This document shows positions 684 through 27,700 of a stretch of DNA of 64,000 nt, piece by piece; position 1 is the stretch's first letter, and each line of letters opens with the position of its first letter. The position numbers were made by a program, and so were the translations under genes. The notes under the pieces were generated by a model, which was given only the letters and a program-made list of their open reading frames with translations, was not told where the DNA came from and did no database searches. This DNA comes from Panopea generosa (taxonomy: Eukaryota > Mollusca > Bivalvia > Adapedonta > Hiatellidae), in assembly GCA_029582155.1 (NCBI GenBank), contig CM055896.1:7146624-7210623 (forward strand). The letters are read 5' to 3'.

Positions 684-788
684 TCAATGATAAGCATCAT
701 GAATTCTAGCAGCCTCCTGTACAATGACACTTTCATTACCAAACATCTTCACATATGGTGACACTTCTTTCCATTTCACACTGCTTTC
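684..788 (-). CDS. TRPM2-like: Exon 36: C-terminal end of NUDT9-H domain and stop
   Basis: The acceptor is ttttctgacag, phase 0, 34 codons plus TGA. It encodes [13 protein letters not shown] followed by [12 protein letters not shown] and the stop. This matches the last strand and helix of NUDT9/TRPM2 (the conserved 'W...LYA.H...' ending and a C-terminal tail close to the usual '..AHY' end), so the protein ends at the family's normal position. Confidence 0.93.
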   Translation of the reverse strand, partial: ESSVKWKEVSPYVKMFGNESVIVQEAARIHDAYH

Positions 789-3700: not shown

Positions 3701-6700
3701 CATATTCTTGGTTTCACATGATTATCATATAATAGGTTTCATGAGACAATCATAATTATGCTAATTGCTTGATACGATTATTCATATTCTTGGTTTCACA
3801 TGATTATCATATAGTAGGTTTCATGTGACAATCATAATTATGCTAATTGCTTGATATGATTATTCATATTCTTGGTTTCACATGATTATCATATAATAGG
3901 TTTCATGTGACAATCATAATTATGCTAATTGCTTGATATGATTATTCATATTCTTGGTTTCACATGATTATCATAATTTTTAGTATGTTTCATATGAGAA
4001 TATGCTGCTCCTTTATAATAATTCTCACACAAGAGGTTTCATATGATTACCATGTGAGAATCCTGTTCATATGACCAGTATTAAAAAATGAGAATGATAT
4101 GTGGCTCCGTTTTTATGATTCTTACATGAGAGTTCCTAATGACTCTGTGACTGAGTTGCCTGTGAATGATTTAAAATACTTTCAGATATATGAGAAACCA
4201 CTTCAAAATTTGTTTATAAGAAAGTAAAACAAATCATTGACTAAGCAGGGAAGTTTGAAGACATGGTGATCGTGGGGGTTGAACTTTCTAGGCTCAGTTC
4301 CCTTTCACATATATGAGATAGCCTGCCAATGACTATAGTACATCTTCAATATGCCTCTTGTCTTAAAACTGCTAAGTGAAAAATGGTCCATGGGGTCTCT
4401 AAAAGCAAGTAGTTGCATAACAGAGATGCCCGCTAACACTGATTAGCTTGTACCTACCCCTGGAAGACAGTAGCTTGTATCAATGTAGTTGTCTTTTTGT
4501 ACTGCAATAAACTCCAGGACCCGCTTCCCTTCCACGTACAGATAGTCTGTCATCGTGTTGAGGTCAGGTCCATATTTACGCCGCCATCGAGTCACCACAG
4601 CTTTAATGACATGATTTGGACCCCAGCGCCACAAGTTACCCTTTCCTCGCATACCCGTTCTGCCTAACGGATTTCTATAAGAGACACGCAAGTAATGGAG
4701 GTCAATTTTGAATAACACTGATATGCTAAATATGTTATATTGAAACCAATAGGTTACCGAATGATAATAACAACATGAGGCCAAGCTCATCCATGGATGG
4801 AAACAATCTATTTGTGCATGATGTTTGACTGTGGTTTTTATTATCATTATTTAACTATTAATCTCAAAGTAAATGTCTTATATACACAACACAAAAAAAC
4901 ACAGTCAAGCAAACAAACATGTAACACTACATTATATATATAAAGCATTTTTTAGAAAAAGCAGTTTCAAAAAATATCAATATAATCTCTGTCAAATTTT
5001 GTCTAACAGTGGCCATCTGGGATTACCGTCAAAATTCTCTTTTCTATTTCAATCAACATAACATCATAAAATTTAAATATCTTGAATAAATTACAAAGAA
5101 GACATATAAACAATAGTATCAAAGACAACAGAAACACAAACTAGGATAGCTATGTGAATAGTAAAAATACAAACTGAGGTATATCTAGAACATCGAGGGT
5201 GTATCTGAGAGGCTGATTGTCAATATTTATCCACGATCTGCGGTCTATCTCTCTCCGTTCACCATTCTCCTTGTATGTGATAACAGCATTCCACTTGGGC
5301 GTGAATTCTATGATCGGAGATAAGCGAGTGTCATCATCATCGGTGAGCTTTGATCGTTCCTCCTTCTGGTGATGCAATCTGAATTGTAAAACAATCTTGT
5401 CATTGATGTCATATATAGCTGTCATATAGCTGAGAGCATGTATACAATACCTTAAGCTTTACTTACTCAAAGTAAAAAATTAACAAACAAAATCATTCAT
5501 CTATAAAAAATGGAACAACAGAAAAAACAACACATGTACCACTTGCTTTTATTTCATCAAACAGAAACAACATGGCTGAAACCTGCAACTGGGTAGGCTA
5601 AAGTCCCTTCTTTTAACTTATTATACATGTTTTATAAGATTTTCTGCATGACCGAACGAAGATGCAACGCAACATGAAAATGGTGCGTAAATTCCCCTGT
5701 CAGAGGAAAATTCCCCCCTCAGAGGGCCCTGGTCCCATTCCCCCAAAGTGAAGGGAGGGACCTGGTAGGGTATTAGTCACCTTTTTATGCAAAATTAATT
5801 AAATACAGTATGGATAATAAGAGCTTTCGTCTTTTTGAACTATTTTTATTGGTCCAAATGACTTTGAGATAACAGGTTTCAACTGTATATCATCTGCTCC
5901 TGTAAATACTTACTCAATGATGTCTTCATCCACGAACATGATTTCATTCTCGGGAAACTCATCTTTCTTCATTGTGATTGTTTTCGGATCATACACGTCA
6001 TAGGGAATCTAAATAACAGTAACGATATTATTGCCATAGCAACAATATGAAATACAGTAACTGTTCTTGAGCTATATCAATCTAAATGACAATAGTATGC
6101 CTCATTTCTTCTTTGTTTAATGTGATGTGATCCAGTCAATATATTAGTATATGATACCACCCAGTCCAATATATAAAATATGTGAGTATTTCAATGTGCA
6201 CATAACAGAAGTACTTCCCTTTTCCAAAGGTTGTACTTTGAAATGATGTTATTGTTGTATGGTATTTCGTGTCGCTTTCAATAATTTTTCAGTTATATCA
6301 TGAAAGCATCTACTTAAGATGGTATTTTAAGCGCTGCCACACTGGAATATCATACCGCAAACACATGGTATTATACCCCACCCAGTCACATTATACTGAC
6401 ATAGGGCCTACCAGACCTAAAACTATTGCCAAATTCTGTGTGCCAAGCAAAGAAGCTTCTATTATAGTACCATTTTTCAAGTCTTTGGTATGACCCTGCC
6501 TGGGATCAAACCCATGACCTTCTCCATGCAAGGCAATTGCTCACATGAACTGATGCATTTGTTATTTTCATATCATATTTGAATACGTTTGGTATAATAT
6601 AATCACAGCTCAGTCAGTAGTGAGTCTGTCTATCAATCCAGGCGTCATGAGTTCGAATCCCCATCTGGTGACTGTTTCCATGATGAATGATATATGACAT

Positions 6701-9700
6701 TACGTCCCATTGACGTTTGTCTCACCGCTGATTCAAATGAGAAAGTTACCAGTTACATGCGAAGATGAGTGTGCTTAAGTTCTGTTTAATCTTCCAGGAT
6801 TCAAGTTAAGAGTGGTTAGGTTAACTGATCGTCTGATAGCACTCAATGGCATTAAAATTATGCTAAACATTTAAACAAATCAAACTTGATGACACTATGA
6901 GCAAACCAATTTCCATTGGCAACTTATATAACCTACCTCCCAGGGTACATATTTATCAAACACTGGGAACCGAGTTCTTCTAGTACCAGGGTAGGGGGAC
7001 TGTCTCGCTGCGATGTGGATGAATCTACCCTTCACATTCGTTATACCCATTACCTCTGGAACACAAGAGAAGAATAAAATTAAAACATAAACTCTAAAAC
7101 AGCTTGACCTACATTTAAATTTTACATATCAAAACACAATTCTTGAAGATCTCAGAAATAAATAAATAAATTCCAAGTCTCAGAAACAATCCAGTTTTTT
7201 TCAAGATAAATATAACAAGATTTGGAGATCCTAAAATTCAATAGAAACATATGACATGCAGAACTGCAAATACAATCGGAACAAATACATCACAACAAAG
7301 TTTCAGACACAAAAAAACAGAGGTACTGTATACAGTGGTAAACTGCTCCATAGCATTACGAGGGTTCAGCACCATGTCGTATAGCAAGAACAGACTGATT
7401 TAGAGGAAGAATTGTCGATATGATCTGCACATTTCATTATTGGATTTCACCCAGTGGAAATCATAGATTTGACAGACTCTAAGTAACGATTATGTAGAGT
7501 GTGTAATCAGGTGGTAGAGCATCAGAATCAGGAGCAGGGAGTCGTGGATTTGGTCCTCCTCTATGACTATATATGGTGTCCTTGAGCAAGACACTTTATA
7601 CACATATACTTAATACTAATTCTACCCAGGAAGACTTTAAACGTAATTTGTCCACGTTGTAATAACTTGTTTCACAACTGAAGTAAAATGAAAAAAGTTT
7701 AAACAAAACATAGTGAATACAAACCAACGGTTATTCAGATAACCCTGTAAACTCACCAGATTTCTCCAGTTTGTGCGCTATATCCTCGAGGTAGAGACGG
7801 CTGGACTGTATCATCCTCTCCAGTTCCACAACTCTGTCACTCAGACGCTTCATACTCTTCCTGTGTGTCCTCAGATCCTCTTGTAAACTCACCAGACTGA
7901 GATTAGATAGAGAGGGGCTATATTCATAACTATATATCTTCTCAATGTATATTTTTTCTTTATTATTTGGGAGAGGGTGGGGTATTGGGGAGATAAATTT
8001 TATTTATATGACAGAAATCTTCAGAAAGTAGAATCTAGTTATAATAAAGTACAAAGAATAAAGAAAATATTTAGGGTGCATAGAAATACTGTAAGTTACT
8101 GCATTCATCATATGTTTTGAGACAGTACAAAAAAATAATTATTTTTCAAATAATAAGTATTGGGTCAGAAATGTTTTTTGATTATTTGTTGCTGTTCCAA
8201 AACATATGGCGAACACCACAATGGATATGAAAGTTAACGAGTAATATCGCATGTGAACGAATCATGTCTTATAAATACAGTTTATGTAAACACACAATTA
8301 ACATGTATCAATGTTTGAATCAATGAGAAACACCCTAAACAGTTGTATATAATGACCCAATTTCTTATGTGCCCTTTTAACCGGATTCCCTTGGACAGTC
8401 TACACTACTTTTAAATAAGTATACAGTGGAACCTTTGTAAAGCAAACACTCAGTTAACCTATATAGTTTTCAATTCCCACTTTGGTCCGAAAACTATATG
8501 TAAGAAATTTGCCAGTTACTTATGGAAGAGAAGTGATTCTTTTCAGATTCATTCTGAGGTCTGTCTCCCTTTCTCCACCAATAGAACTTGATGCCATATA
8601 TAACATGTAATATGTAGAAAATGCCAATCAACCACATTCTTTTTAAAAATATAACCTTTATAATAGACCGACAGTCCATACGTACATATCTCCCTGTTTT
8701 GCTGATATGTTTCCTTTATCTGCCTTAGCTTCCTCGCTGACAACATACTCTCGTGCTACACGTTTCCAGAACACGTTGTCATCGACACTCTTCACACTGC
8801 ACCTGCCTTTGTAACGATTCACTTTCTTCTCCTGTAAACGACAACAACGTCTGATGAAAGATCTTCGCAAAACTCATTTTTGGGGAGGGGGAATGTTAAA
8901 ATCATCAGACACTAAGTAATTGAAAAAAATATTTTAAAATTGTATAATTACATGTAGAACATTTAGTAAGAGCTGTTTCTGCCTCAAACTACTTATTGTA
9001 GTGAATGAATGAATGAATGAATGAATGAATGAATAGGGTTTTATGGTGTACCAACACATTATAGGTTATTCGACGCCAACAGGAAGGAAGATTCCAGGTT
9101 CACTCTACATGTACAAAAACAACAAATTAACATACAGATTAAAAAAAAATACATCAACAAATGAATATGCAGAATGAACCTAGAACCTTGATACCTGCAG
9201 AACTACAGAGTTTCAGCAAATTCTATCCTATTACTCAATTTGTCGCTTCTTACGACATGCATAAGCCACAGTGATCCTATTCTTGCCATCACTCATGGCT
9301 CCCTGGAACCACACAGGGGTTGATAATTTAACCACAATAGTGAACATGACAAAAAATGATAAAATGAACATGACACCCATTCGGAGGATTCCTACCCCTC
9401 TGCAGAGATGGACAGTGATTCTATTCTTAGCCAGAATCACATGGGCTAGTGAGAGAGAGGGAGTATACTGGTCACTTATTCAGGCACCTGTAAGCTTCTA
9501 TGAATAATACAATGTATGAGTCCTCTATGGCCGAGTGGTCTAAGGTGCCATCCCAAGATCACTTACCTTTCACCGCTAAGGTTGTAGGTTCAAGTCCTGC
9601 TACAAAAACTTTATGTCAGAAAGTTTGCCAGTTACTTGTGGAAGGATGGTGGTCCTACTCAGATTCATCCTGAGGTCTTCCTCCACCAGTAAAACTGGAT

Positions 9701-12700
9701 ATGCCATATAAACCTGAAATGTGTTGAAAATGGTGTTACCCAACTCCCCACTCCCATTCCAATTAAATATTTTCAAATTTTGTTTGGCAGTTCATGAGAA
9801 GAATATTTTTTTAGCATTTAACTATAATAAGCAATGGCAGCCATCTTGAATTTTCGATTTAGAAAAAAAAGTGTGTATAATATCACATACATGAGAAACA
9901 TCCATGTGAAGTTTTGAGTATAACTGGACAGTGGTTTTAGAAAAATATTGCTTACAGGCGACAACGGACAACGGATGACAGACAAAGGATAGCATGCCGT
10001 AGCATAAGCGCTTCTGGCCTTTGACCAGTAGAAAACATAAAGTGTTTTTTTTCCAAACAGGCGTATAAAGCTCTTCCTTTAGTTTAATGCATATAATTAG
10101 TACTTATTAAAATTAGCATAACTTTCATATAATTATTTACCTCTTTTTTCAAACAGCAATGACTTAACCCACGTCGACATTTCATCAGTCTTCTACAAAC
10201 ACACTTGATGAACAGGTATATAAAGCTAAGCACAGTGAAAGGAGGTGGTAAACTGAACCGCTCGATAAAGTCCGCGATCAGCGCGTAACGTTGGAACTTC
10301 CAAATCTCGCTCGCTTCCTTGTCTATCTTACCGATTGTTAGTCTGAAAGGACAGATTTACTATTAAATTCATAGGAAAACTGTACATTACATTTACATTT
10401 TTTACAAAAGTGGTGGGGGCTTCATTATAGATTATACAAGAATGATCTGATTTGTTCCCTTGAGTTCCTTTGACAATCAAAAGGTTTCACTGATGTTAAG
10501 GCTGATAGTTATTGAGATATGAGATTGATGAAAAACTGAATTTTCCAATTGAAAAGGGGTCATCATACTGTCTAAAATCAAAATGAAGTTATCCCACATG
10601 TCCCTTTGAGCTCCTAAATGTAGGTGAAGATTTCATTGATGTATGACAAGTAGTACCAGGTATCTAAGATATAACTTTCCCAAGGAAAGAAAATGTCTTA
10701 ATCACATTTTCTAGGTATAAAAAGGGCCATGATTCAGTCTAAAATAAAAAGAAAGATAGTCATACCTGACACATTGAATCCCATTTTAGGTAGTGAACAC
10801 ATGCATAAAGTTAAATAAATTCATTATCATAACGCTGGTAGTAACTGTAAACTGATAAGAGTTTGCCAAAACATATTATTCAAATGTTCTAAGCACATCA
10901 TATACAAGGGTCATAACTCTTCCTAAAATCAAAACAGAGTTATCTTACTTATCTTATTAGTTCCTTTAATGAAAAGAAGAAACATCACGTGACATGTGAA
11001 GATTCATTGAAATATTATTTGTGATTACCGAGATTTGACAGTCCTAAAAATCTGAGTTTTCGAATCTAAGAAGGGAACATAATTCTGCCTAAAATCATAA
11101 TGGGGTTATCCTACTTGGCCTCTTGGGTCATCTTTATGGTATTGAAAACACACAAGATGTTTCATTGATGTTTGGGTATGGTTACTGAGATATAATATTA
11201 TATACTCACGAAAACATGGCAAACAGCAGGGTGACCAAGACTAGTTTACAGATCAGCAGGTATTGTAGTGTTATCACATAGCCAGAGAAGCTGGAGTGTG
11301 GGCACTCTGATAGACTTTGGGCCAGCGTGTCACCTGCAAAAACAAACAATCATTTATTTCAACAAACTTATGACTTATTTGGTTTCTATGTGTACATAAT
11401 TTTATGCATAATGAAATGCTTTCTTCAATAAAAAATAATTGTTTGAAGATTTGAGAAGAAATAGACTAATTCCAGAATACATGTACTTCCATAAATATCC
11501 AATTAAATGATTAAATACAGAAAACCAAAATTACAAATGCTAAAAAATCTTAGTACATGTATCCCTTTGATTTTAAAGTAAGTTCAGTAACAATGTGTAA
11601 TCAAGTTACACAGTTGTATGACAATATGATTCATCTCATCCCAATTTTCTCATGTTACAGGAATCATGCATGCATTTCTTACCTATTATTTTTTGTGAAT
11701 GAAAGTATAACTGAATACAATTCTTACTGTCCTCATAACGGCATCTAGTTTGTATTAGTATTATAAATAATTACAAAAAAAATTACTAGATCAATATTTT
11801 TTTTTACAACTCAGTAAAAAATAAATAAATCTGAATGCCAAGAGAATATGCTTGAACCTGCTGTACAGCAAGTTCTGAATCTGATTAAAACTGGGGAGGA
11901 ATGCTGATCCAAAACTTGACGGAGGCAAGCACCATTTTAATATGGTATACCTCAATTTACTTTGAAAAGCAGGCAATAATAAACAAGGAAATTGTTAATG
12001 ATAATGAAAAAGAAGGTGCAAGTGACAGGGTGAAATGATTTCTTATCCTATTGATTTATAAACTTACTTTTTGCGTTACCATCTCCACGATTATAGTAGC
12101 CTTGGCCTGAAATGTAGCAATACCAGAGATTAAACGTTCTGTAACTATTTTATGATTCTGTTCTACTAGATTGACCTGGGCTCACACCCTACACCTAAGT
12201 GGTGAGAGTAAGTAATCTTGCAACATTGCCTTAGGTCCCAAGGCCACAGCAAATCGTTTTCTTGAACTGCAGACTGCTGCATGCCAACTAGTATTCTATC
12301 TATCACGTCAGAGATCCCAGGTTCGATCTCCAGCTCGACCCAATACCTCTTAAATAAACATGCAGTACTGGTTCTACCAAGAAAGCGGACTTGAAGGCAG
12401 TTCATATAAGCTTTGACCTGTCTTTGCTATCGAGCTAGAATGAATTGATATAAATTAACATGGGACAAAATTTGACTCCGAGCCAAACTTGTTGCTAGAG
12501 CCATACATTTATAGGTGTGACACCACCACTAATTTTTCTTCTCATTTACATAGTGAATAATAATAAATGAATAAACCACTTTTAAAGGCATGTCATTCAT
12601 AAAAAGGCAGATATGAAAAAAGAGAAACTTACATTTCATTTTGTGTTCACATCTACAGTGCCAAAATATCATATGAAAATTAAAGGTCATTTTTTAGCCA

Positions 12701-15700
12701 AAACATTTTTTTTTGTTCAGTGTGTTCAATTTAAAGTGAAAATAGACTTCAAAAATAATTAGTCATGTCAAAAATTCCAAGCATCAATTTTTGACAATTC
12801 AAAAATAACAATGCTTTCAAAAGTTTATAGGTGTAACCCCAACATTGATTTTTGTTCATTATTCTTTAGTAAATAATAAAAGTTTGAAGGCTTGTCTTTC
12901 ATAGAGAGACCCAAATGAAAGCAGTGAAACTTACATTTTACTAAACCGCTGCACTACCAAAATATGATGAGAACAGTAGAGGCCATGTGTCATATAAGAG
13001 GTTTTTTTCTGCTCTGTGTGTAAAACTGTTGACAAAGTGAAAGTAGACTTCCAAATTTATACATTCATACCCAAATTTCCAAGCATCATTTTTTTTTTTC
13101 TAAATCACAATTCAAACATAAAATGCTTTCAAAATGTTTAAAATACATCAAATTGCATTTTTAAAGAAGAAGAAACAAGGATTATTTATAACTGCCATTA
13201 TGTGACTACCCCAAGGAAGCGCTTCTTTTTTCCAACGGTGGTAGTATGCCTACAAATACATGAATAATGCCATTAAGTTCCCAAAATGAGCTTTAAAATA
13301 AGGAATACTTTTTTAAAACTTTAGGTGCATCATCATGTTACCAAAAGAGCAGGATATTTTTTATTGGATAGTTTTGTGGCATAATGCAAATGTAATAAAC
13401 AATTTTACATCTCACGATCAGACCAATTTAAAATCAAGTAATTCATGTGAAAAGTAAACAGCAACTGTAGTATGAGTTGCTTCCCTTTGATAATTCTTCA
13501 CATACACATGTAGGTCTATTACAGGATTGTGTTCAGCACCATTAACAGCCAACACGTTTACTGCCTGGTTACCTAAAATTAGTGCATACTGCATACTAAT
13601 TTAAGGTAGAGCCAGTGTCAAGAAAAATATGTTACATGTAGCTAACTTTAGCAAACATTTAACAGAACTGAATGCAGCCCCTGAGTGATTTTCTATTCCC
13701 AAAATATACATGTATATGAGGTTCCCTACAAATTAGTTCCAACTTTCTTTTTCTTTTCCTTTTTGTTTGCTTTATGTTTGGTATTTTTTTATTTTCTAAG
13801 CAACATTTTTTTTGTTCATCCAAGCCTTAAAATACTGATCAGTAAAAGAAAATATGTCTTGTGTGGTATGAATTTCTTTTAGGCTCCCCAGCCAACCTTC
13901 ACATTGTCTGTAACAGTGTTTGTAAATGAGACTTTTTTCTTTCTTAGAAAACATTTGACTGTGTTTTTTCATCTTTATATTTCATAGGGTTATCTTAATA
14001 GAAAAGTGGTTATCAAGTCTCAATTTTTGCATTTCTACTATTTACATGTCTATGAAATGAATTGTTTTATTTAAAAACATTCTAACACCTTTCTCACTTC
14101 AATACCATCAGTTATATCACAAACATCCTTAACAGACAAACACTCAAATTTACTGACATCAATATGAGCATATATTAGCACACTCTTGAAATCTACTTCT
14201 TGATCAAGCGATCATATTTTTATGCAAAAAGAAATCATTCAAAATATAATCTGCAAACAAAAGAACAGCATATCCTTCTGTATCCATATCCTATTTATGT
14301 GGTACAAAACAACAGGGTATTAGGAACTGTTTTGTTCCACGCAAAAACAGCCATAACATAATGAGATGTGTACAAAAAACAGCCTCCCTGAGCAACATAG
14401 TGTATGAAAAGTTGAAAAAAAACTGACCCAACACAAGAACAACTATTGCTCCGCCCACTGGTCACATTGCGCTGATTGTCCAAGAAAATACAATGTAATA
14501 CAATGTAGTGTTTACTTAGAGATGGTTCGCTTGTCTAAGGAAAGTAGAAGTGTAGCAACCAATATCAATCGCTGATTGGATTATCAACTTGTTCGATTGA
14601 CAGCGTGTCTCGGGTCAATTTAATGAACATTCTATTATGTAAACAAAAAAATATTTACTATTGACAAAGGGAGTGCAGTTTCTTAATTATAAAATTTTTA
14701 CTAAATGAATGAACGCTAACTGGTTTAGTGTTAAACGGCATTTGACTAACAGGTTGATGTCATTTGACTGACTCCGAGAAGAGCTATGATGAAAGCTGAG
14801 ATGACTGATGTTTTAAAGTTGATGTTTGCTAAGGCCGTTTCTAAGGAAAGCTCACTCAGTTTTGTAGTTTGTACACAATTCATTCAGAATTGATTCAAGG
14901 GCGAGTCTGTGGAATAATATTCACACATGCATAGTGATGATGAACTTCTTAATAATTAAGAACAAACTTAATAATTAAGTTATTTTGTAGGCTGTTTTAA
15001 CAAAAAAAGAGCAACACAATTTTGAAAATTGAAGCGATTCCATTGGTTGTCAAATGAGGTTAAACACCAAGTTGTTTTTGCACAGAACATAATGGCTCTC
15101 AGAGCCACAAATTTCTATACAGCTCAATACAATTTGGCCGCTTTTCCACGGAACATGTCAGTTGTTGAAAGGATATAAATTTTTGTAGTTAAATTGTGGT
15201 TTTCATGATTAAAAGAAACATTTTGCAGTAAAATAAGTATATCAAAAGAAAAAAAACAAATTTCCACTATAATTTTGTTCCATGTTTCTGTTACTTTCAA
15301 ATAGGTTTAATTTTCTTACCTGCAGAGCAATACCCAGTGAGGTTCTTGTAGTATCCGGAACATGCAGGATTGCCTGAAAACATGAATAATTTACCTTTCT
15401 ATAAAGAAATAAGAAATTTTAATTAGTTAATAGGGACTTTTTGGATCTATCATAAAGAATATCAAATTCTTCTGAAATCCAGAGACAGGAATAGCAAACA
15501 GTAAATACCAGTAGTTTGTTTTTCATCAGTGTTGATTGGATAAAATACTAATAGATAAATTGGGCTACTCACGCCAAAGGCTGCGGATTCGATTCCCAGC
15601 TCGACCAAAACAGCAACACTCAGCACTGGTCTTACCCAGGAAGAAGATTTGAGAGCGGTTCATATAAGCTCTGAGTTTTCCTCGTAATCGAGCTTACAGT

Positions 15701-18700
15701 CAGTATAAACTAAATATTATTTTCTTGCATACCAGATAAGGATTGCTGCATATTTACTGGGATAAAATATATCTGTATCAACCTAGGGTCGAAATAAAAT
15801 TCACATGCTGTGACATTTAAACCATCTACAACATGATATATAAAAATATATGACATGATAATATAATTTGACATCTTAAAGGTGGTAGTGATCAAAATAA
15901 CATAATGATGAATTCAACTTAAATACATTTCAATGTGTTTGGCATGCAGGAAAAATAATCATTCATGGCTTTTTCGGTTCAGGTAGAAAATTCTGTCCCT
16001 TAGAATAAATGGTTATCCATCCAGACAGATATTCAATCTGAACCCGAAACTTATGTAACTACAAAGACGTGAAGAAGAAAACAACCCTTCATCAATGAGG
16101 CCATCCCATGGGGGTGGGGGTGGGGGGTCCCTGTTCCCTGGACCTCTTAAAGTAATGGCCATTGTTCCAAATATCCCCAAAAGTATTTGCCATAGTTCCC
16201 CAAAAATATTTCCCCCAGATCTCCAACATTGGGACTTTGATCCCTGGATCTCTGAAAGTAATGGTCAATGTTCCCCAGATCTCTAAAAATAATTGGCCAT
16301 GTTCCCAAGATATCCTATACCCCTGGTGGGGCCTCATCAGTGCTTACCATCTAGATCCTGAACTTGTGTAAGAAACATGGCATAGATTGGTCGGGTGATC
16401 ACACGCTTGATGAGTTCTGTGTTCAATGGCCAGTTTGGATATAACACGGCTTGAATCGTTACCCCACCCACTATCATGAATATCATGAACATGCGGATAA
16501 AGGCAATGAAGTCATGTTTCACCTGAAACAAAGAATACCGATATACAACAATAGAAGTGAACAACTCGTACAATAATACATAAGTGAACATACTGTACAA
16601 TAATAGATAAGTGAACAACTCCTACAATAATAGATAAGTGTACAACTCGTACAACAATAGATAAGTGAACAACTAAATTTGGACTAAACCATAACCTGTG
16701 GTACGGAGCCTTGTTCCTGCCAAAACAGTTATCCCTGGCGACTGAATTTTCTATCTGAACCATAAACACATGTAAGTATTTTATAACCTGTAAGTTGACA
16801 TTAACCCTTTTTTTCCATAGATACGCATTTCCCCGCACCAATCACAGAAGGCCTTTGAAAACAGTGCAGGAAGCACTTCCTGCACTGTTTTCCACTCTGT
16901 CAGTTAATATAAACATAATTCTCCCAATAATTCAAAAGCCTTCTATATTAAAGGTGTCCAAAGGCGTCTATATGAAGTAAAGGGTTAAGACCACATGAAA
17001 TGTTTATCCTACATTTGTCACCAAGGGTATAAAGTATGTAGTATGCATTTTGAAATTAAGACAATATTTTATTGCATAGATTTTATTAAATGGTTGTTAT
17101 TTTACAGCACAAGTGTTCCCATTGTGGCTGACCCCCAGGGAAAGATGTAATTAATCAGTGGGGTGTTTAGTGAGATAAATCATGGCACTTAAAATTGTGA
17201 CCATTCTTTTTTGTAAATATCGATATCCATGAAATTTTAGTGAAGCTAGAAAGGCAACAAGATTTTCAAGGAAGACAGATGATGATCCAAAATGGATTAG
17301 CCACTGGAATCTGACTTCCTATTTTTTGAGCACCATTTTCATTGTTTAATGAAAACTGATTGCAATCTAAATTTAATTGCTTAAAAGCAGATCTAGTAAC
17401 ACATAGCAACCAAATAACTATGAAATACAGTTGATCTAGGGCAAAATTAGTTAAGATGACCTTTTCCTAAACTATTGCCCAGCTAATGGTGTGATGTGTT
17501 TTTTTTTGTGTGTTTTTATAAGTTTTAAATATGTTGTTGTATGTTTTAAATGTATATGTGTAGAAAAATAGCAATCAGTCTCTCTAAAGAGCATCTCTTA
17601 GCTTCACTTTGTATAACTGAAAATGTTTTATATATTTAGATTGTAATGTGATAGAGGTGAGACTTAAATACAATATATGTGATATGATACCAGATTGACA
17701 GAAGGAATACCTGTCTTTGTCTTACATTCCCATTCCACATAACATTGGCCCCAGGGTAGGGCTGACAGGTAAGTAAACTCCTTAGCACATAATTCTTACC
17801 ATTCTATTCATTCTGAGCAACATTGGCCCCAGGGTGGGGCTGATGGGTAGGTAAACTCCCAACAGTCTGTAGAAGAAATAGATGAGACCAAAACACATGA
17901 ACGTCTTCGCCTGTATGTAGTTTGTGACACTGATCCAAACGTGGAGTATCCGCATCAGTAGCAGCATCACAAGGAACACCATTATCACAAATATGTCTAT
18001 ACAGTTGCCAACTAGAGATAGCTTCTCGTATTTCTGAAGAGTATACAGTAACTTTTATTAACTTAAACCTCAATAAGATTACCAGTGAGATGATTAATTT
18101 GACCTCTGTAAAATAACAACATAACCCCTCTGTACAAAAGTGACCCAATATAATGGTCAGAGAGTACATAACAGTTCTGATTTCTGTCTCACCAACATAT
18201 TCTTGTTTGTGAATTTTGACTGGTTATTTATCAATTATCTAATGAATGTCAATGAAACCATATGCAATTGTGCTGGAACCAGTCTAAAATTGTAATCACC
18301 TGGATGTTTTTCATAGATTTAAGTCTTTATGTATTTATATATACTTAAATCTGTTTGTAAAACAGGAGCTTATTCTTATATTTCACTGCATAACATGGTG
18401 TAAGTGGAAGAGGTGAGAAAAAAAAATTCAATTGTTCAAATATTACATGTCACCCAAACTAAACTAGGCAATGGATATTTTGAAATTAGCAACAAGAAAG
18501 TAATACTGCCGATGGATACATCCAAATAAAAGTGCAGATTAAACAATCAAAATATTATATTGATTTGTAATAAAAAGAGACATTGATCTACAAATGAGCA
18601 TTAATGTATTATTGTATGACTGAAGCACAAGCAGTAAATGGTACAGCTGCAGGGGAAAACTGGTATACCATGGTTTTTAGCTGCGTCAGTACTTAAGGCA

Positions 18701-21700
18701 GTTCTATTATGGAGTACCGGTTTTTCAGCTATTTCCGTGACTGAGAGTTTACTGAAATCACCGAAGTAAAAAGGAAATAAAGTGTTGTATTCATACTTTA
18801 GAAAGTTAGATTTCAGCTTTTAAGTTTCTAGCTGTCTTTATTTTAAAAGTAATGCATTATAAGACGAGTTTTACTTGGTAATATGTTACTACAAATATAT
18901 TAACAAGAGTTGTCAGAAGACAACAAAGCTCGCCCCTCGGTGCCTAAGTCAAAAAAGGGCCATAACTGTGTCAAAATGCAATCCATAGTTATGGTTCTTG
19001 TCTGTGTGCGTTCCATTGATGATGGTGAACACAAATGCGAAGTTTCATTCACATCCAAGAGTGGTTGCATAGATATCTTAAACTTAAATACAGAAGTTTA
19101 ACCTGGCTGTCTACAGACGACGCCGACACCGGGGTCATGGCAATAGCTCTTCTTGGACTTCGTCCCTGCAAGCTAAAAACAAATCATCATACGTTATACC
19201 ATCGGCAACATCAAAAGTAATCAAAATGGCAGACAATTCAAAACCAGCGTGGTAAATCTAACATTTGGAGATATATTGGCCTTTAAAAACAACACAGTAA
19301 ACCATGGTATATACTGCGGTACTCACTAAAAAAATGTGATATACCACAATACTTTTTTTTCTCACAGTACACACCTCTAGTAAACTGTGGCAAACTTACG
19401 TGATATTTCATGTATACACGACACACCAGTTCCATCTCAATAATGGCCGTCCAAAACCACAGTACCAGATCCAGGTACTGGTTCCCACATGTTGGCCAAA
19501 GTGTTGCTAGGCAAAACACACCTAGATACGCAAAGTAGAAAACTTGTGTGGTCCAGAATTTCGTGATGGGTGCTGTCCATAGGAGGTAGATTTTCATGTG
19601 AAATGGAACATCTTTTTTTCTTGTGTCCCGTGAAAAGACATTTTTTAGTCTTGACCCAATGGCACTTTTTTTCTAGGAAAAAACAATTTTTGAACAACAT
19701 GTTCAAAGTATACTGTAAATCAAACATGGCTCAGATAGAAACACTCTGATCATGACCTTGATACAAGGTAAGTTATCCCTCTACTGTTCATTATGCTCCA
19801 ATTTGGCTGGTTCAAGTTTTTGTCGGATCTTTAATGATGATAAACACTATGTTTAAGCTGGGCCTGGTTAGCTCAGTCACTAATGCATCTGACTATCAAT
19901 CCATCCAGAGGTGATTAGTTTGAATCCCCTCCCAGCCACAGTCTCTGCGATGATTGATATATGACAGTGTGTCTCATTATCATTTGTCTCTCACTGCTGA
20001 TTCAAGTGGGAAATTTATAAATTACTTGCGGAGATATGGTGTGCTCAGCTACTGGTTAACCTTTCAGGATCCCAAGAAACAGTGATTAGGGTAACTGATT
20101 GTCTGTTAGCCTTCGATGGCATAATAATGATATAAAATATTCAATCAATCAATCAATCTGTTTAAGAACTTATCCTAGCTTTCATGATCATAAACACTTT
20201 GATCAAGAAAAATGAAGATGCTACAGTGTTTACATAACAAAGTTAACAAACAAACGATGGACAATTATGATGACTTTTGACCAGTCAAGCTAAAAGTGAT
20301 TTTTATGTACAAAAAGTAGTTTAAGACATGATTTGATGTCCAAATTTCAGTGGAAGACCTAAAACTGATAAATAGTTTACCTTTTTCATGACCGAATCAA
20401 ATGTGGATTTAGACACATGTGGGACATATTCATCATCATCAGCCTCTGAATCAGATTCATCATTGTACACCGATGTATCATCCTCAGCTGAAATACACCA
20501 AATCACAGCACTGACTCAAAGCATTATTTGTAACAATCTTTGGGATAAGATGGCATTCATTGTAACTAGCTTTGGGATTGGATGGCATTCTTTGCAACAA
20601 GCTTTGGGATTGAATGACATTCCTTGTAACAAGCTTTGGGACTGGATGGCATTTTTTGTAACAAGCTTTGTCACTGGCAGAAAGGTTTTATTGGAAGATC
20701 AATTCTAACATTTCAACCATTTTAGCTTTTGATTTTCTATCTTTTTTGTGTTCACCTAAAATGAGCTGTTTTGTATATAGCACAGCTATGTGTAGTGTCC
20801 TTGCGCAAGACACTTTATCCACATATGCTTACTAATGGTTCAACCCAGGAAGACTTCAAGCTTGGTTTGTCTAAGTTATAAGAATTTGTTTCCCGATCGG
20901 AAGACTTCGAGCATGATTTGTCTAAGTTATAAAAATTTGTTTCACAATCGATGTAAAAATAATTATTTTAAACAAAACTGCAGACCTACATTATCACCAG
21001 TAGACTCTAGACACTCACCATCCTAGTTAGTGAGACATTTAGTACTGATAAGGGAAGATAAAGTGCTTATAAACATTACCTGTGTAGGTAGTCTTCTGAC
21101 TTGGCGGCATAAATGAAATCCATATGTACATGGGAAATATAAAAAAGGCGCTAACCAATATCTGAAATGAAAAAAAAATCATTGTTATTAAATACAGTCC
21201 TTTATACATTTTAAGACAAACCAAACGCAAAATAAATGCTTTTTCTATTGATGCATTTCACATACATTTGAAACAGGAAAAAAATGCAATGTTCAATGAT
21301 CAACAGATAACAAGAGTAGGCATTTCTAAACAATGGTTAACACAAATGTAAATGCTTAATGCATTTATAAACAAATAGAAAATGCATTTTTCAATAAAGC
21401 TGTCACATTTGGATCCACTCAGATTTTACCACAGTAGTGCATAAAATAAAAATACAATTCCTTTATTAATTCAAAATTAAAATATATATTTATATTAAAA
21501 TACTATTACTGTATGCAGTTATTTTCTACCCATTCCATTTGACAAAGTATTCCTATCAATGTTTGAGGGCATGTGTTAACTCCTGTGTACTATATTGTCA
21601 TCAGTGAAAAAAATAGACCACTTCCTAGAAGAAAATGTCCTTGCAACATCTGACACCTTATTAAGCACAAAAGTGATGTACATGTATTCTACTACCTATT

Positions 21701-24700
21701 AAGAAGGTTAACAAACATATTCATAAAAGAAATTAGTTAACAGAAATAGGAATTCAATTGAGAGTTTTACATTGTTTTTATTTTTCAAAGAATTCCCATT
21801 TGGATCTACATTCGCCAGTCTCTAAACAGTCAACTAAACAACAATTGTTCAAACACAATGGTATGTACACATCCTCTTATTGGATACTATATTGAACTGA
21901 TTGAATATTTAGTGTCATTTTATGCCATCGAGGGCTAACAGACAATCAGTTAACCTAACCATGTTTCATGGGATCCTGCAAGGTTAACCAGTACTTGAGC
22001 ACACCCCATCTTCGCAAGTAACTGATGACTTTCCCACTTGAATCAGCAGTGAAAGAATGATTATGAGACACAATATCATATATCAATCATCATAGAGACT
22101 GTTGCTGGGCGAGGTTCATAAACATACACAAGAAGTTACTATCTGCCATGATTACTGCATGCTATGACACTTACACCAACTGTCTCGCGCTTATGTAAAT
22201 AATGAGAACACTCAAATTTTAATGTGAGAATAGAAATATCTATAATACTGAAATCATGGAAATTTGTTTTTCTCAAATTGGTGTTGAAACGAATTTTTGA
22301 ATAAAATACAATAAAAAAATTAATACCAATTATTATTATTTAATTTCAAAAGCACAACAATTACTGTATAATAGATAACCAAATAGAATTACACATCAGT
22401 AAATGCACTCCAATATCACCAGACAAGTACTGGATTTGAATATCACCAGACAAGCACTGGAATGGAATATCACCAGACAAGCACTGGGTTGGAATATCAC
22501 CAGACAAGCACTGGAATGGAATATCACCAGACAAGCACTGGGTTGGAATATCACCAGACAAGCACTGGATTGGAATATCACCAGACAAGCACTGGAATGG
22601 AATATCACCAGACAAGCACTGGGTTGGAATATCACCAGACAAGCACTGGATTGGAATATCACCAGACAAGCATGTGATTAGAATATCACCAGACAAGCAC
22701 TGGAAGTCCATAAAAGATCAGGTCGACGAGTCATGACCTGGTAAAGGAATCTGGAAAATGTGGTCCAATCAAAACAACAAAAACCGAAACAACATTACCT
22801 TAAACCAGTAAGGTAGCCTAAAAATTCCCCAATCCAGTTCCTTCAAGTGCAGATGACCAAAAAATGTTTTAGTTAGCCATTTCTGGCAACAAGGATGGGC
22901 CAGGAAGTGTATATATCCAGCGTCGTGGGCAATCTCTATCACAGATTTGTTGTTGAAGTCAGGCAAACGTTTGCCAAGCATGTTGTAGGCCTGGATGCTG
23001 GAGTCACGCCAACATATGGCCAGCGCCCCCAAAGCCATTTTACCAAATTCTCTGAAATATTATATGAAAGATAGATTACAAGCCAAAAACAGGTTTAACA
23101 ATTCTTCAGGATTGGAAGATATCCACAAAACAACATATACTTTGTTATCCACCAAACTTAAATGGAATTTTGAAATTTTAAGATTCTTTCCAGATATTTT
23201 TGCGACCAGTAGCATCATAGCATGTCCGTTATTCAAACATTTGCAATGGTGTACCTTTTTAAATGGAATTTAATTGGAACATTTTTCTGAATAAAGATCA
23301 TCAAATATAATAAATCTGTAAAAAAAACACAAAAAAAACCATTGTACTTTAGGCAATAATAAATTAATTGCTAGATTATCATCACCACCCATCTGCTAAT
23401 TTTCCTGCCGCCCTGACTCTTTTTATGTTCATAAAAAAAAAATATGTAAAAAATAAATATACCCCCCCCACCCTCAATCCCATTTTTTAAGAAAAATTTG
23501 GATGAGAATCCAGCAATTATTTATAATGGCTTAATGGTTGCCATCTTCAAATAATGCATTAAATTTTTATTTTATTATCGTTATAGGTAACAATATTGGA
23601 TGATAGATGGCAACAAAAATAACACAAATCAAAAGGGAAACAACCTGAGCGACATAGTTACCAATTTTGAAGAGAAGAAAGAACAAGTAATGGCATATCT
23701 TAATGATAGCAATGGATAGTGTTTTTTATTTTTTTGGATGGGGTTTAACCCCATTTTCAACACATTTCAGGTTATATATGGCACATCCAGTTTGAATCTG
23801 AGTAGAACCACCATCCTTCTGCAAGTGACTGGCAAACATTCTCACATAAAGTTTTACGATTCAGCACGACTCGAACCTATGGCCTTTACACTAAACAGTG
23901 AAAAGTAACTGATCTTGAGACAGCACCTTAGACTAATTGATCAAGAACGACCCTCAAAATAAAATTAATCTATACTAATTCATATTAGCTTGATTGTAAT
24001 AAACAGTAATGGATTAAAATGGCTCTATATATTTATTATTTTTAATGGTGTTAGATATTCAAAATATTCCAATACTTGGCATTTTCCTCGAGCTCTGTTC
24101 TCTGATACTGCTCCATCTTATACTTGGAGAGTTCGCGGAAGATCCGGCTGCAGATGAGAGCGACTCCTATTGGCTCATCACACCGGTTCCAAAGCGTCTT
24201 TGCTAGTTTGTGTCTGTTCATCAACACTGCCCAAATTATCAAGGAATTCACAGCCTGCAAAAACCAACATACAAAACTGAGGTTTTTGTCTACTAGATGT
24301 TGGTTTTGTTGTGTAAATTGGAGAATTTGTAAAACAACATACAAAACTGCAGTTTTTGTTCACTAAATGTTGTTGTTGTTGTATATTTCGGAGAATTTGT
24401 AATACAACATACAACTCTACTTTTTGTCTCCTGATTCCATTCGTTTTTTTACAACACATTATAGCAACATTATTATGGCAATCAGTTTTATTGAAGTTTT
24501 AAGGGCAATAATTCAGACATTGTTTCTCTGATTTGGTCAGTTCAATAACGTGTTTAAGATGGAAGATCCAATGACAAATGCAGGTGATAGAGTGCATACA
24601 AATGTAGAATAATTAAGTTTGTGAAGTTTTGACCTAAAAAAAATAATGTTGGTATAAAGAGAGCAAACAATTTTTGATGAATCAAGGGCCATAACTCAGA

Positions 24701-27700
24701 TAAGGTAAAGAAAAGCCTGTTTAAGATCTTATGGTTATATAAGTACATAAAATATGTTTTGTTGAAGTCTCAATAAATTATTCAGGCCCAAAAGTCTATA
24801 TAAGGCTCAATAGTGCAATGTCTGACAATTCAGTAGGACCGTAACTCAGACATTAATTGTCTGATTTGACCAGTTCAAAAACTTGTCCTTCAGATAAAGG
24901 TGATATAACTACTGGGTTAGTTGGTTATCACAGTTGGTAGAGCATTTGACTATCAATCTTAAGGTCGAGAGTGCGAATTCCAATCTGACCACATCTTACT
25001 AACAATCTAAGGGTCTTGAGTTGGAATTCTCATCCGACCATGTCTGACTATCAATCTAAGGGTCGTGAGTTGGAAACCCCATCCGACCATGTCTGAATAT
25101 CAATCTAAGGGTCTTGGGTTGGAATCCTCACCCGACCACATCTTATTATCAATCTAAGGGTTGTGAGTTGGAATCCCCACCCGACCACATCTTATTATCA
25201 ATCTAAGGGTTGTGAGTTGGAATCCCCACCCGACCATGTCTGACTATTAATCTAAGGGTTTTGAGTTGGAATTCCCACCCAACCATGTCTGACTATCAAT
25301 CTAAGGGTTATGAGTTGGAATCCCCACCCGACCATGTCTGACTATCAATCTAAGGGTCTTGAGTTGGAATTCCCACCCAACCACATCTTACTATCAATCT
25401 AAGGGTTGTGAGTTGGAATTCCTGGCCCGACCATGCCTGACTATCAATCTAAGGGTCTTGAGTTGGAATTCCCACCCGACCATGTCTGACTATCAATCAA
25501 AGAGTCATGAGCTGGAATCCCCTCCGACCATGTCTGACTATCAATCTAAGGGTTGTGAGTTGGAATCCCCACCCGACCATGTCTGACTATTAATCTAAGG
25601 GTCTTGAGTTGGAATTCCCACCCAACCACATCTTACTATCAATCTAAGGGTTGTGAGTTGGAATTCCCACCCGACCATGTCTGACTATCAATCTAAGGGT
25701 CTTGAGTTGGAATCCCCACCCGACCATGTCTGACTATCAATCAAAGAGTCATGAGCTGGAATCCCCTCAGACCATGTCTGACTATCAATCTAAGGGTTGT
25801 GAGTTGGAATCCCCACCCGACCATGTCTGACTATCAATCTAAGGGTCTTGAGTTGGAATTCCCACCCAACCACATCTTACTATCAATCTTAGGGTCGTGA
25901 GTTGGAATTTCCACCCGACCATGTCTGACTATCAATCTAAGGGTCCTGAGTTGGAATCCCCACCCGACCATGTCTGACTATCAATCTAAGGGTCATGAGC
26001 TGGAATCCCCACCCAACCATGTCTGACTATCAATCTAAGGGTTGTGAGTTGGAATCCCCACCCGACCATGTCTGACTATCAATCTAAGGGTCGTGAGTTG
26101 GAATTCCCACCCGACCATATCTGACTATCAGTCTAAGGGTTGTGAGTTGGAATCCCCACCCGACCATGTCTGACTATCAATCTAAGGGTCTTGAGTTGAA
26201 ATCCCCACCCAACCACATCTAACTATAAATCTAAGGATCGTGAGTTGGAATCCCCACCCGACCACATCTTACTATAAATCTAAGGGTCTCGAGTTGGAAT
26301 CCCCACCCGACCACATCTAACTATAAATCTCAGGGTCTTGAGTTGGAATCCCCACCCGACCACATCTTACTAACAATCTAAGGGTCTTGAGTTGGAATCC
26401 CCACCTGACCACATCTAACTATAAATCTAAGGGTCTTGAGTTGGAATCGCCACCTGACCACATCTTACTAACAATCTAAGGGTTTTGAATTGGAATCCCA
26501 ACCATACCATGTTTGACCATCAATCTAAGGGTTTTGAGCTTGAACCACCACCCGATCACGTCTGACCATCAATCTAAGGATCGTGAGTTCAAATCCCCAC
26601 CCTACCACATCTGACTATCAATCTAAGGGTCTTGAGTTTGAATCCCAACCAGACCATGTCTGACTATCAATCTAAGGGACATGAGTTTGAATCCCAAACC
26701 CGACCATGTCTGACTATCAATCTTAGGGTCGTGAGTTCGAATCCCCACCAGACCATGTCTGACTATCAATCTAAGGGTCATGAGTTTGAATCCCCACCCG
26801 ACCATGTCTGACTATCAGTCTAAGGGTCTAAAGTTGGAATCCCCACCAGACCATGTCTGACTATCAATCTAAGGGTTGTGAGTTTGAATCCCCCACCAGA
26901 CCATGTCTGACCATCAATCTAAGGGTCGTGATTTTTAATCCCCACTCGACCATGTCTGACTATCAATCTAAGGGTCGTGAGTTCAAATCCCCACCCTACC
27001 ACGTCTGACTATCAATCTAAGGGTCTTGAGTTCGAATCTCACTAGACCATGTCTGACTATCAATCTAAGGGAAATGAGTTTGAATCCCCACCAGACCATG
27101 TCTGACTATCAATCTAAGGGTCGTGAGTTTGAATCCCCACCAGACCATGTCTGACTATCAATCTAAGGGTCGTGAGTTTGAATCCCCACCTGACCATGTC
27201 TATCAATCTAAGGGTCATGAGTTCGAATCCCCACCGAACCTTGTCTGACTATTGATCTTAGGGTCGTGAGCTTGAACCACCACCCGACCATGTCTGACTA
27301 TCAATCTAAGGGTTGTGAGTTGGAATTCCCACCTGACAATGTCTGACTATCAATCTGAGGGTTGTGAGTTTAAATCCCCACCCGACTATGTCTGACTATC
27401 AATCTAAGGGTCGTGAGTTGGAATCCCCACCCGACCATGTCTGACTATCAATCTAAGGGTTATGAGTTGGAATCCCCACCTGACCATGTCTGACTATCAA
27501 TCTAAGGGACATGAGTTCGAATCCCCACCCGACCATGTCTGACTATCAATCTAAGGGTCGTGTGTTCAAATCCCCACCCAACCACGTCTGACTATCAATC
27601 TAAGGGTTTTGAGTTCGAATCCCCACCCGACCATGTCTGACTATCAATCTAAGGGTTCTGAGCTTGAACCACCACCTGATCATGTCTGACTATAAATCTA

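What the first reader, a model, noticed from the sequence alone, without database searches (positions are those of the whole stretch)
15320..16522. Pore loop of a TRPM2-like channel lacks the FGQ-type selectivity filter
Seen: exon 22 reads ...[16 protein letters not shown] after S5, and S6 in exon 25 reads [10 protein letters not shown]. Known: TRPM2, TRPM4 and TRPM8 have F-G-Q after the pore helix and N-L-L-I-A-M-F in S6. Here the pore helix anchor 'LT' is kept, the G-Q-I/P stretch is missing or replaced by QVQD, the loop is about four residues shorter, and the S6 Asn is Thr. Inference: ion selectivity or gating is probably changed, although the rest of the gene is intact.
Basis: partly seen in the sequence, partly recalled or inferred. 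Interest (0 to 1): 0.8.

Follow-up and report, generated by a model that had tools for sequence, protein, structure and literature searches.

The report
TRPS channel with glycine-free pore filter
The odd pore of this bivalve ion-channel gene is the usual pore of TRPS, a little-studied sister family of TRPM channels, and the sampled family shares a pore so unlike other TRP channels that its ion selectivity should be measured.

Summary
The segment aligns gap-free with TRPM through the pore helix, so F-L-T falls on F/Y-G-x, and the loop is about one residue shorter than invertebrate TRPM, not four. The same genome keeps a TRPM exon with a Y-G-E filter. TRPS, and substitutions in its pore, are in print; my searches found no main-text description of this three-part signature. 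The functional consequence (low Ca2+ preference, little desensitisation) is inferred from TRPV1 Y671K/R and untested.

The parts
684..46806 (-). TRPS (CED-11-like) gene, 31 modelled exons, 1772 aa from 46806 to the stop at 684; upstream of 46806 not modelled; some splice sites approximate
   Evidence: tblastn with Mactra and Mya proteins, splice modelling, tree
17800..18033 (-). model exon 17: S3-S4 and S4-S5 linker (...GNCIDIF...[19 protein letters not shown])
16348..16522 (-). model exon 18: S5, turret, pore helix, filter and post-filter stretch (...[16 protein letters not shown])
16367..16375 (-). codons F-L-T that align with F/Y-G-x of TRPM
   Evidence: coordinates counted
15320..15373 (-). 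model exon 19, 54 nt, phase 1/1: outer pore loop [17 protein letters not shown]
11210..11333 (-). model exon 20: rest of outer loop and S6 (...[17 protein letters not shown])
11245..11247 (-). S6 Lys codon (AAA); a basic residue here in 170 of 172 TRPS rows, in 0 of 38 TRPM rows
   Evidence: coordinates counted
11230..11232 (-). S6 Thr codon (ACC) at the site of the TRP-wide S6 Asn
10141..10342 (-). model exon 21: end of S6 and TRP helix (...[13 protein letters not shown]...)
684..7055 (-). model exons 24-31: NUDT9-homology region; the stretch where the Nudix box should lie reads [25 protein letters not shown]
   Evidence: relatives

Best explanation
The gene encodes a TRPS (soromelastatin) channel, closest to the 'TRPM member-like 2' type proteins of other bivalves. 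SHOWN: its pore loop and S6 are the usual ones of the TRPS proteins sampled here (molluscs, arthropods, tardigrades, nematodes, rotifers, amphioxus): no Gly at the end of the pore helix (F-L-T in place of F/Y-G-x), Thr or Pro in most in place of the S6 Asn, and a Lys/Arg five residues above that site. INFERRED: it still forms a tetrameric pore of TRPM type, with a filter of Leu/Thr backbone and Thr hydroxyls instead of the Gly carbonyl and the Gln/Glu side chain, an outer acidic ring, and four S6 lysines near the cavity. By analogy with TRPV1 Y671K/R this predicts a cation current with low Ca2+ preference and little desensitisation. Gating would not use the TRPM Ca2+ site, whose two S2 ligands are absent in this protein, and the NUDT9-H domain would bind ligand without hydrolysing it.
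For: Tree of 54 proteins, 1712 columns: TRPS 41 rows and TRPM 13 rows lie on the two sides of one branch (SH-aLRT 100), the window with Mactra, Mya and Dreissena. Filter Gly 0 of 175 TRPS against 38 of 38 TRPM; S6 Asn 1 of 172 against 38 of 38; Thr at the third filter site 142 of 174. Gly within five residues of the anchor aromatic: 4 of 175 against 38 of 38; S6 Lys 162 + Arg 8 of 172 against 0 of 38 (Asn 37, Ala 1). In 45 rows grouped as molluscs (7 without a name) F and T of F-x-T are invariant. Register: and pore helix 453-468 ending at that F with a short helix 473-476 after it in the AlphaFold2 model. Fold: TRPM2 chanzyme and other TRPM chains head the PDB matches. S2 Ca2+ ligands: the E893-equivalent is Leu and the Q896-equivalent Arg in the window, against E 38/38 and Q 37/38 in TRPM; in nvTRPM2 E893A channels fail to open (PMC5976436, passages). 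Y671K/R lowers relative Ca2+ permeability and abolishes desensitisation (PMC2645548, one passage). TRPS is a published family (PMC13143021).
Against: I know of no TRPS recorded on its own (recall); the Brugia work knocked down ced-11 together with gon-2, and the drug-evoked current fell by about half (PMC7387335, passages), which does not isolate it. That the S6 Lys faces the pore is inferred from the TRPV1 position, not shown. The group labels were first set by the Pfam hit PF00520, which depends on the channel domain itself; the tree, a partly independent check, covers 53 of the 213 counted rows and has no outgroup, and within it the two amphioxus TRPS attach nearest to TRPM, so TRPS as a clade rests on PMC13143021. 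The third filter site varies in TRPM too (E 15, N 12, D 5, Q 2, T 2, L 1, S 1), so Thr there is not unique. Alignment confidence is low exactly at the filter. Four TRPM rows were in the alignment given to AlphaFold2 and could draw the model to the TRPM register. Rows are related species, so counts are not independent events, and the TRPM yardstick is mostly NUDT9-H-bearing TRPM2/TRPM-beta.
Confidence: 0.85

Rival explanations
1. TRPS pores are Ca2+-selective by convergence with TRPV5/6, the TRP channels whose filter also lacks the Gly (pore FELFLTIIDG). The shared F-L-T-x-[IV] stretch and the nearby acid would make a narrow filter that strips water from Ca2+.
For: TRPV6 pore sequence from the PDB. 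[quoted passage not shown] Acid at the third or fourth site after the Thr in 139 of 175 TRPS rows. Nematodes mostly read F-T-T-D, with Thr at the Gly site.
Against: In the best profile register the Thr sits one residue after the Gly site, except in most nematodes and 3 of 8 rotifers. TRPV6 keeps the S6 Asn and has Thr where TRPS has the S6 Lys, and four lysines would oppose Ca2+. The motif is too short to prove convergence.
Confidence: 0.12
2. TRPS subunits conduct poorly or not at all alone and act as regulatory subunits of heteromers with other TRP subunits.
For: Two residues common across TRP channels (filter Gly, S6 Asn) are gone and a charge sits in S6. PMC7387335 proposes heteromers of TRP-2 with GON-2 or CED-11 (passages).
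Against: The pore looks constrained, not decayed: F and T invariant in 45 rows grouped as molluscs, Lys/Arg in 170 of 172. Loss of pore function would be expected to relax these sites.
Confidence: 0.2
3. One reading: a TRPM2-like channel of this species has lost part of its filter by a short deletion.
For: A NUDT9-homology region is present and the loop is one residue shorter than in invertebrate TRPM.
Against: The gene groups with TRPS, its closest bivalve relatives have the same loop, and a TRPM exon with Y-G-E exists elsewhere in the same genome.
Confidence: 0.02
4. Gene-model error: the real transcript uses another exon carrying a canonical filter.
For: None found. The pore exon could in principle be alternatively spliced.
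Against: Pore HMMs over six frames of the window hit, at E below 0.1, only model exons 17, 18, 20, 21 and a 19-codon scrap of exon 17. Annotated proteins of Mya, Dreissena, Mactra and others have the same loop.
Confidence: 0.02

Closest known systems
TRPS / soromelastatin family (C. elegans CED-11; PMC13143021)
   Same: Place in the tree, melastatin N-terminus, NUDT9-H without a recognisable Nudix box, cysteines in the outer loop, the whole pore signature
   Different: No essential difference seen; the nearest row is 71% identical (Mya P0002)
TRPM2 / TRPM-beta (Nematostella, choanoflagellate, human)
   Same: Domain order and fold, S5-pore helix register, and in this particular protein the S3 Asn and Asp of the Ca2+ site
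   Different: No filter Gly, S6 Asn to Thr, S6 Lys, S2 Ca2+ ligands absent, Nudix box absent (the box is also altered in vertebrate TRPM2)
TRPV5/TRPV6
   Same: Filter without the TRP-wide Gly; F-L-T-x-[IV] stretch; acid nearby
   Different: Different family; TRPV6 keeps the S6 Asn and has Thr at the S6 Lys site; register of the Thr differs by one in most TRPS
TRPV1 Y671K/R mutants
   Same: Basic residue five before the S6 Asn site (671 against N676)
   Different: Laboratory mutants in a Gly-type filter; TRPS has it naturally and nearly throughout the sample

Membership tests
TRPS (soromelastatin) | Falls on the TRPS side, not the TRPM side, of the family tree | tested here: met
   41 TRPS rows against 13 TRPM rows split by one branch, SH-aLRT 100; window on the TRPS side; no outgroup, quick method
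TRPS (soromelastatin) | Melastatin homology region | tested here: met
   Exons 3-13 align with Mactra and Mya, and Mactra P0001 hits Pfam LSDAT_euk and TRPM2 domains; the spliced window protein itself was not scanned
TRPS (soromelastatin) | NUDT9-H present but hydrolytic residues not conserved (PMC13143021) | tested here: met
   NUDT9-H exons present; box region reads [25 protein letters not shown], like TRPS relatives
TRPS (soromelastatin) | Two cysteines in the outer pore loop (PMC13143021) | tested here: met
   Three Cys in the loop encoded by exons 19-20; pairing not testable
TRPS (soromelastatin) | No Cys-rich N-terminal region (PMC13143021) | not tested
   5' end not modelled
TRPM2 / TRPM-beta | F/Y-G-x filter | tested here: not met
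   F-L-T in the window; filter Gly 38 of 38 in TRPM rows
TRPM2 / TRPM-beta | S6 Asn | tested here: not met
   Thr in the window; Asn 38 of 38 in TRPM
TRPM2 / TRPM-beta | S2-S3 Ca2+ site (E, Q, N, D) | tested here: not met
   Window: Leu, Arg, Asn, Asp; TRPM: E 38/38, Q 37/38, N 38/38, D 38/38
TRPM2 / TRPM-beta | Gated by ADP-ribose and Ca2+ | not testable with these tools
   Needs expression and patch clamp
TRPV5/6-like Ca2+-selective filter | Thr at the Gly site | tested here: inconclusive
   Leu at the Gly site in the best register, Thr one residue later; gap placement ties in the pairwise case
TRPV5/6-like Ca2+-selective filter | High Ca2+ selectivity | not testable with these tools
   Needs recordings

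The most novel reading that the evidence does not exclude
TRPS is a whole animal channel family that gave up two residues common across TRP pores (filter Gly, S6 Asn) and placed four basic residues in S6 near the cavity. Its pore would then be non-desensitising and poor in Ca2+, perhaps monovalent-selective or even partly anion-permeable. That would fit a role in moving salt and water, as in the cell shrinkage reported for CED-11 in dying C. elegans cells (recalled, paper not seen), rather than in Ca2+ signalling as in TRPM2.
Probability: 0.25. Interest if true: 0.75.

Novelty: new member of a known kind. Interest (0 to 1): 0.45.

Why it matters
The gene itself is ordinary for its family. What matters is the family: TRPS was named in 2020 (cited in PMC13143021; original not seen) and I know of no TRPS recorded alone (recall). 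The alignment gives it a clear pore signature, with one site (S6 Lys/Arg) where a known TRPV1 mutant already predicts a phenotype. It also warns that invertebrate genes labelled 'TRPM2', 'TRPM member-like 2', 'TRPM1-like' or 'TRPM7-like' can be TRPS (names seen; PMC13143021 reassigns several) and should not be assumed to carry TRPM2-type Ca2+ currents.

Tried and rejected
Rejected: an alternative pore exon in the window; a four-residue deletion; decay of the pore (conservation). A strict regular expression for the Nudix box found 1 of 38 TRPM and 0 of 175 TRPS; it does not discriminate, so I used only the stretches, where 12 of 16 chosen proteins gave a stretch to read. A count of TRPM genes in the same genome was not obtained: the search with a TRPM pore piece did not complete. 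No comparison of structures at single residues was possible: the fold tools give ranges only, and whole-model Foldseek TM-scores are low (query-normalised 0.33-0.38) because the domain arrangement is not matched. The listed rows (50 each) are TRPM chains and NUDT9; no TRPV row is listed, which excludes nothing. A tree of all 213 rows, or one with an outgroup, was not built.
Full report
WHAT IS THERE. The gene lies on the minus strand. tblastn with Mactra and Mya proteins and splice modelling give 31 exons in frame from 46806 to a stop at 684, 1772 residues; the 5' end was not modelled and some splice sites are approximate. The pore is spread over exon 18 (16522-16348: S5, pore helix, filter), exon 19 (15373-15320, 54 nt) and exon 20 (11333-11210: S6).

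WHAT IT IS. A search of 5.8 billion proteins with a rough model (109 hits) and two follow-ups (155 hits of which 120 listed, 45 hits) gave 220 proteins. I set 4 aside before any count because their domain make-up is unlike the rest (P0100, P0109, P0163, P0172). I took the 38 that carry Pfam PF00520 as TRPM and the 178 without it as TRPS candidates. PF00520 is itself the channel domain, so I checked with a tree of 53 of these proteins plus the window over 1712 columns: the 41 rows called TRPS (window included) and the 13 called TRPM lie on opposite sides of one branch, SH-aLRT 100, and the window joins Mactra, Mya and Dreissena. The tree has no outgroup and its root is for drawing only; on it the two amphioxus TRPS attach nearest to TRPM. 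That TRPS is a clade and the sister of TRPM comes from PMC13143021 (abstract, passages, section 6 part 1 and section 33 part 1 seen). That paper names ced-11 as the C. elegans member, reports TRPS in molluscs, arachnids, nematodes and amphioxus, reassigns some sequences filed as TRPM, and says that the NUDT9-H catalytic residues are not conserved and that pore residues are substituted (its Figure S6b, which I could not see).

THE PORE. I aligned S4-S6 of 175 of the 178 TRPS proteins plus the window (P0140, P0149 and P0157 dropped by length) and of all 38 TRPM, and compared the two profiles: Prob 99.9, gap-free from S5 through the pore helix, F-L-T on F-G-E, one single-residue gap right after it, Thr on the S6 Asn. 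Confidence per column is 9 in S5 and S6 but 6, 4, 3 at F, L, T. The same register comes from a TRPM exon of the same genome: 47 residues, 40% identity, no gap, F on the Y of Y-G-E. TRPM8 'AMFGQVPSDVDG' (matched in the PDB) equals '[12 protein letters not shown]' in length. In an AlphaFold2 model of Tegillarca P0021 (mean pLDDT 76.8, pTM 0.56; block means 73-84 at the pore; 47 rows, 4 of them TRPM) the pore helix ends at that F and a short helix starts after four more residues, like the filter and post-filter helix described for nvTRPM2 (Y1035-G1036-E1037; PMC5976436, passages). Its best PDB matches are TRPM2 and other TRPM chains. Two gap placements tie in the single-sequence comparison, so the exact partner of Leu is not certain.

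COUNTS. Filter Gly: 0 of 175 TRPS, 38 of 38 TRPM. S6 Asn: 1 of 172 TRPS (a tick, P0086; 3 gaps), 38 of 38 TRPM. Thr at the third filter site: 142 of 174 TRPS; in TRPM that site is E 15, N 12, D 5, Q 2, T 2, L 1, S 1. To be free of the exact column: a Gly within five residues of the anchor aromatic in 4 of 175 TRPS and 38 of 38 TRPM. By group (my grouping by hit id): in 45 mollusc rows (7 without a name) F and T are invariant and the Gly site is L, I, F or R; the 74 arthropod, tardigrade and unnamed rows mostly read F-L-T-P; the 45 nematode rows mostly F-T-T-D; the 8 rotifer rows have S or T at the Gly site; the 3 amphioxus rows read W-L-T-P. A third feature appeared: five residues before the S6 Asn site TRPS has Lys in 162 and Arg in 8 of 172 rows (one Asn, one Leu, 3 gaps), TRPM Asn in 37 and Ala in 1 of 38. 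Counts are of related clusters, not independent events. Four of four TRPS proteins tested show no PF00520 match at a limit of E 10 (the program's filters drop most matches above about 0.1), while a Haliotis TRPM has 67.9 bits.

HOW IT PROBABLY WORKS (inferred). PMC7431192 (section 7 part 1) states that a Gly after the pore helix is common to non-selective TRP channels and to TRPM4, and is Thr in the Ca2+-selective TRPV5/6. PMC9242649 (passages) gives the filter Gly in 86.3% and the S6 Asn (TRPV1 N676) in 93.7% of the TRPs it aligned. By parsimony TRPS lost both. The S6 basic residue falls on TRPV1 position 671 by counting from N676; PMC2645548 (one passage) reports that Y671K and Y671R lower relative Ca2+ permeability and abolish desensitisation, and PMC7349285 (passages) describes Y671K as a Ca2+-defective mutant. 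Hence the prediction of a steady, Ca2+-poor cation current. The TRPM Ca2+ site is not intact (window Leu and Arg for E893 and Q896, Asn and Asp kept), and E893A nvTRPM2 does not open. The Nudix box stretch is unlike that of invertebrate TRPM such as P0091 and P0156, so NUDT9-H is probably a binding domain. The Ca2+-selective rival rests on TRPV6 'FELFLTIIDG' and is weakened by the S6 Lys.

WHAT IS KNOWN. Eight paper searches found TRPS in print. For the physiology of a TRPS gene I looked only into the Brugia paper, where ced-11 was knocked down with gon-2 (PMC7387335, passages); other listed papers on the same drug were not opened. I found no main-text description of the combined Gly-less filter, lost S6 Asn and S6 Lys. 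The scallop TRP survey PMC8539334 (passages) names TRPM2a and TRPM2b and has no occurrence of 'selectivity filter'; whether either is TRPS I did not test.

VERDICT. The family-wide pore signature is the part worth pursuing.

Noticed in passing
window 17725-17781 (-): A partial tandem copy of the 3' part of exon 17 lies just downstream in the intron: 37 of 41 nt identical, reads [19 protein letters not shown] and is followed closely by a GTAAGA.
   Followed up: partly
window about 54758, 55435 and 56028 (-), and more weakly 47930 (-): Reading frames share a stretch like MEG.E..VSG.QP....VN.NQ... MSTN..LDEV, as if a 5' exon had been repeated in tandem upstream of the modelled gene.
   Followed up: no
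window 22364-22717 and 25314-27834: Tandem repeats, seen in the ORF lists only, that read as open frames (QCLSGDIP.. units; PCLTINLRV.. units) within introns 13 and 11 of the model.
   Followed up: no
   Followed up: yes
L010 1291-1692 (-) (own genome, contig C2): A TRPM-type exon of the same genome with a Gly-type filter (IPYWQMYGELFLEDMEG).
   Followed up: partly
P0068, P0078, P0142-P0147, P0072, P0150, P0051, P0074, P0119, P0042, P0046: TRPS-like proteins in rotifers, tardigrades, centipede, millipede and horseshoe crabs, groups not in the TRPS list of the sections of PMC13143021 that I read.
   Followed up: partly
window 684-7055 (-): The NUDT9-H domain has no recognisable Nudix box, while invertebrate TRPM such as P0091 and P0156 keep REFGEE and KEFCEE.
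   Followed up: partly
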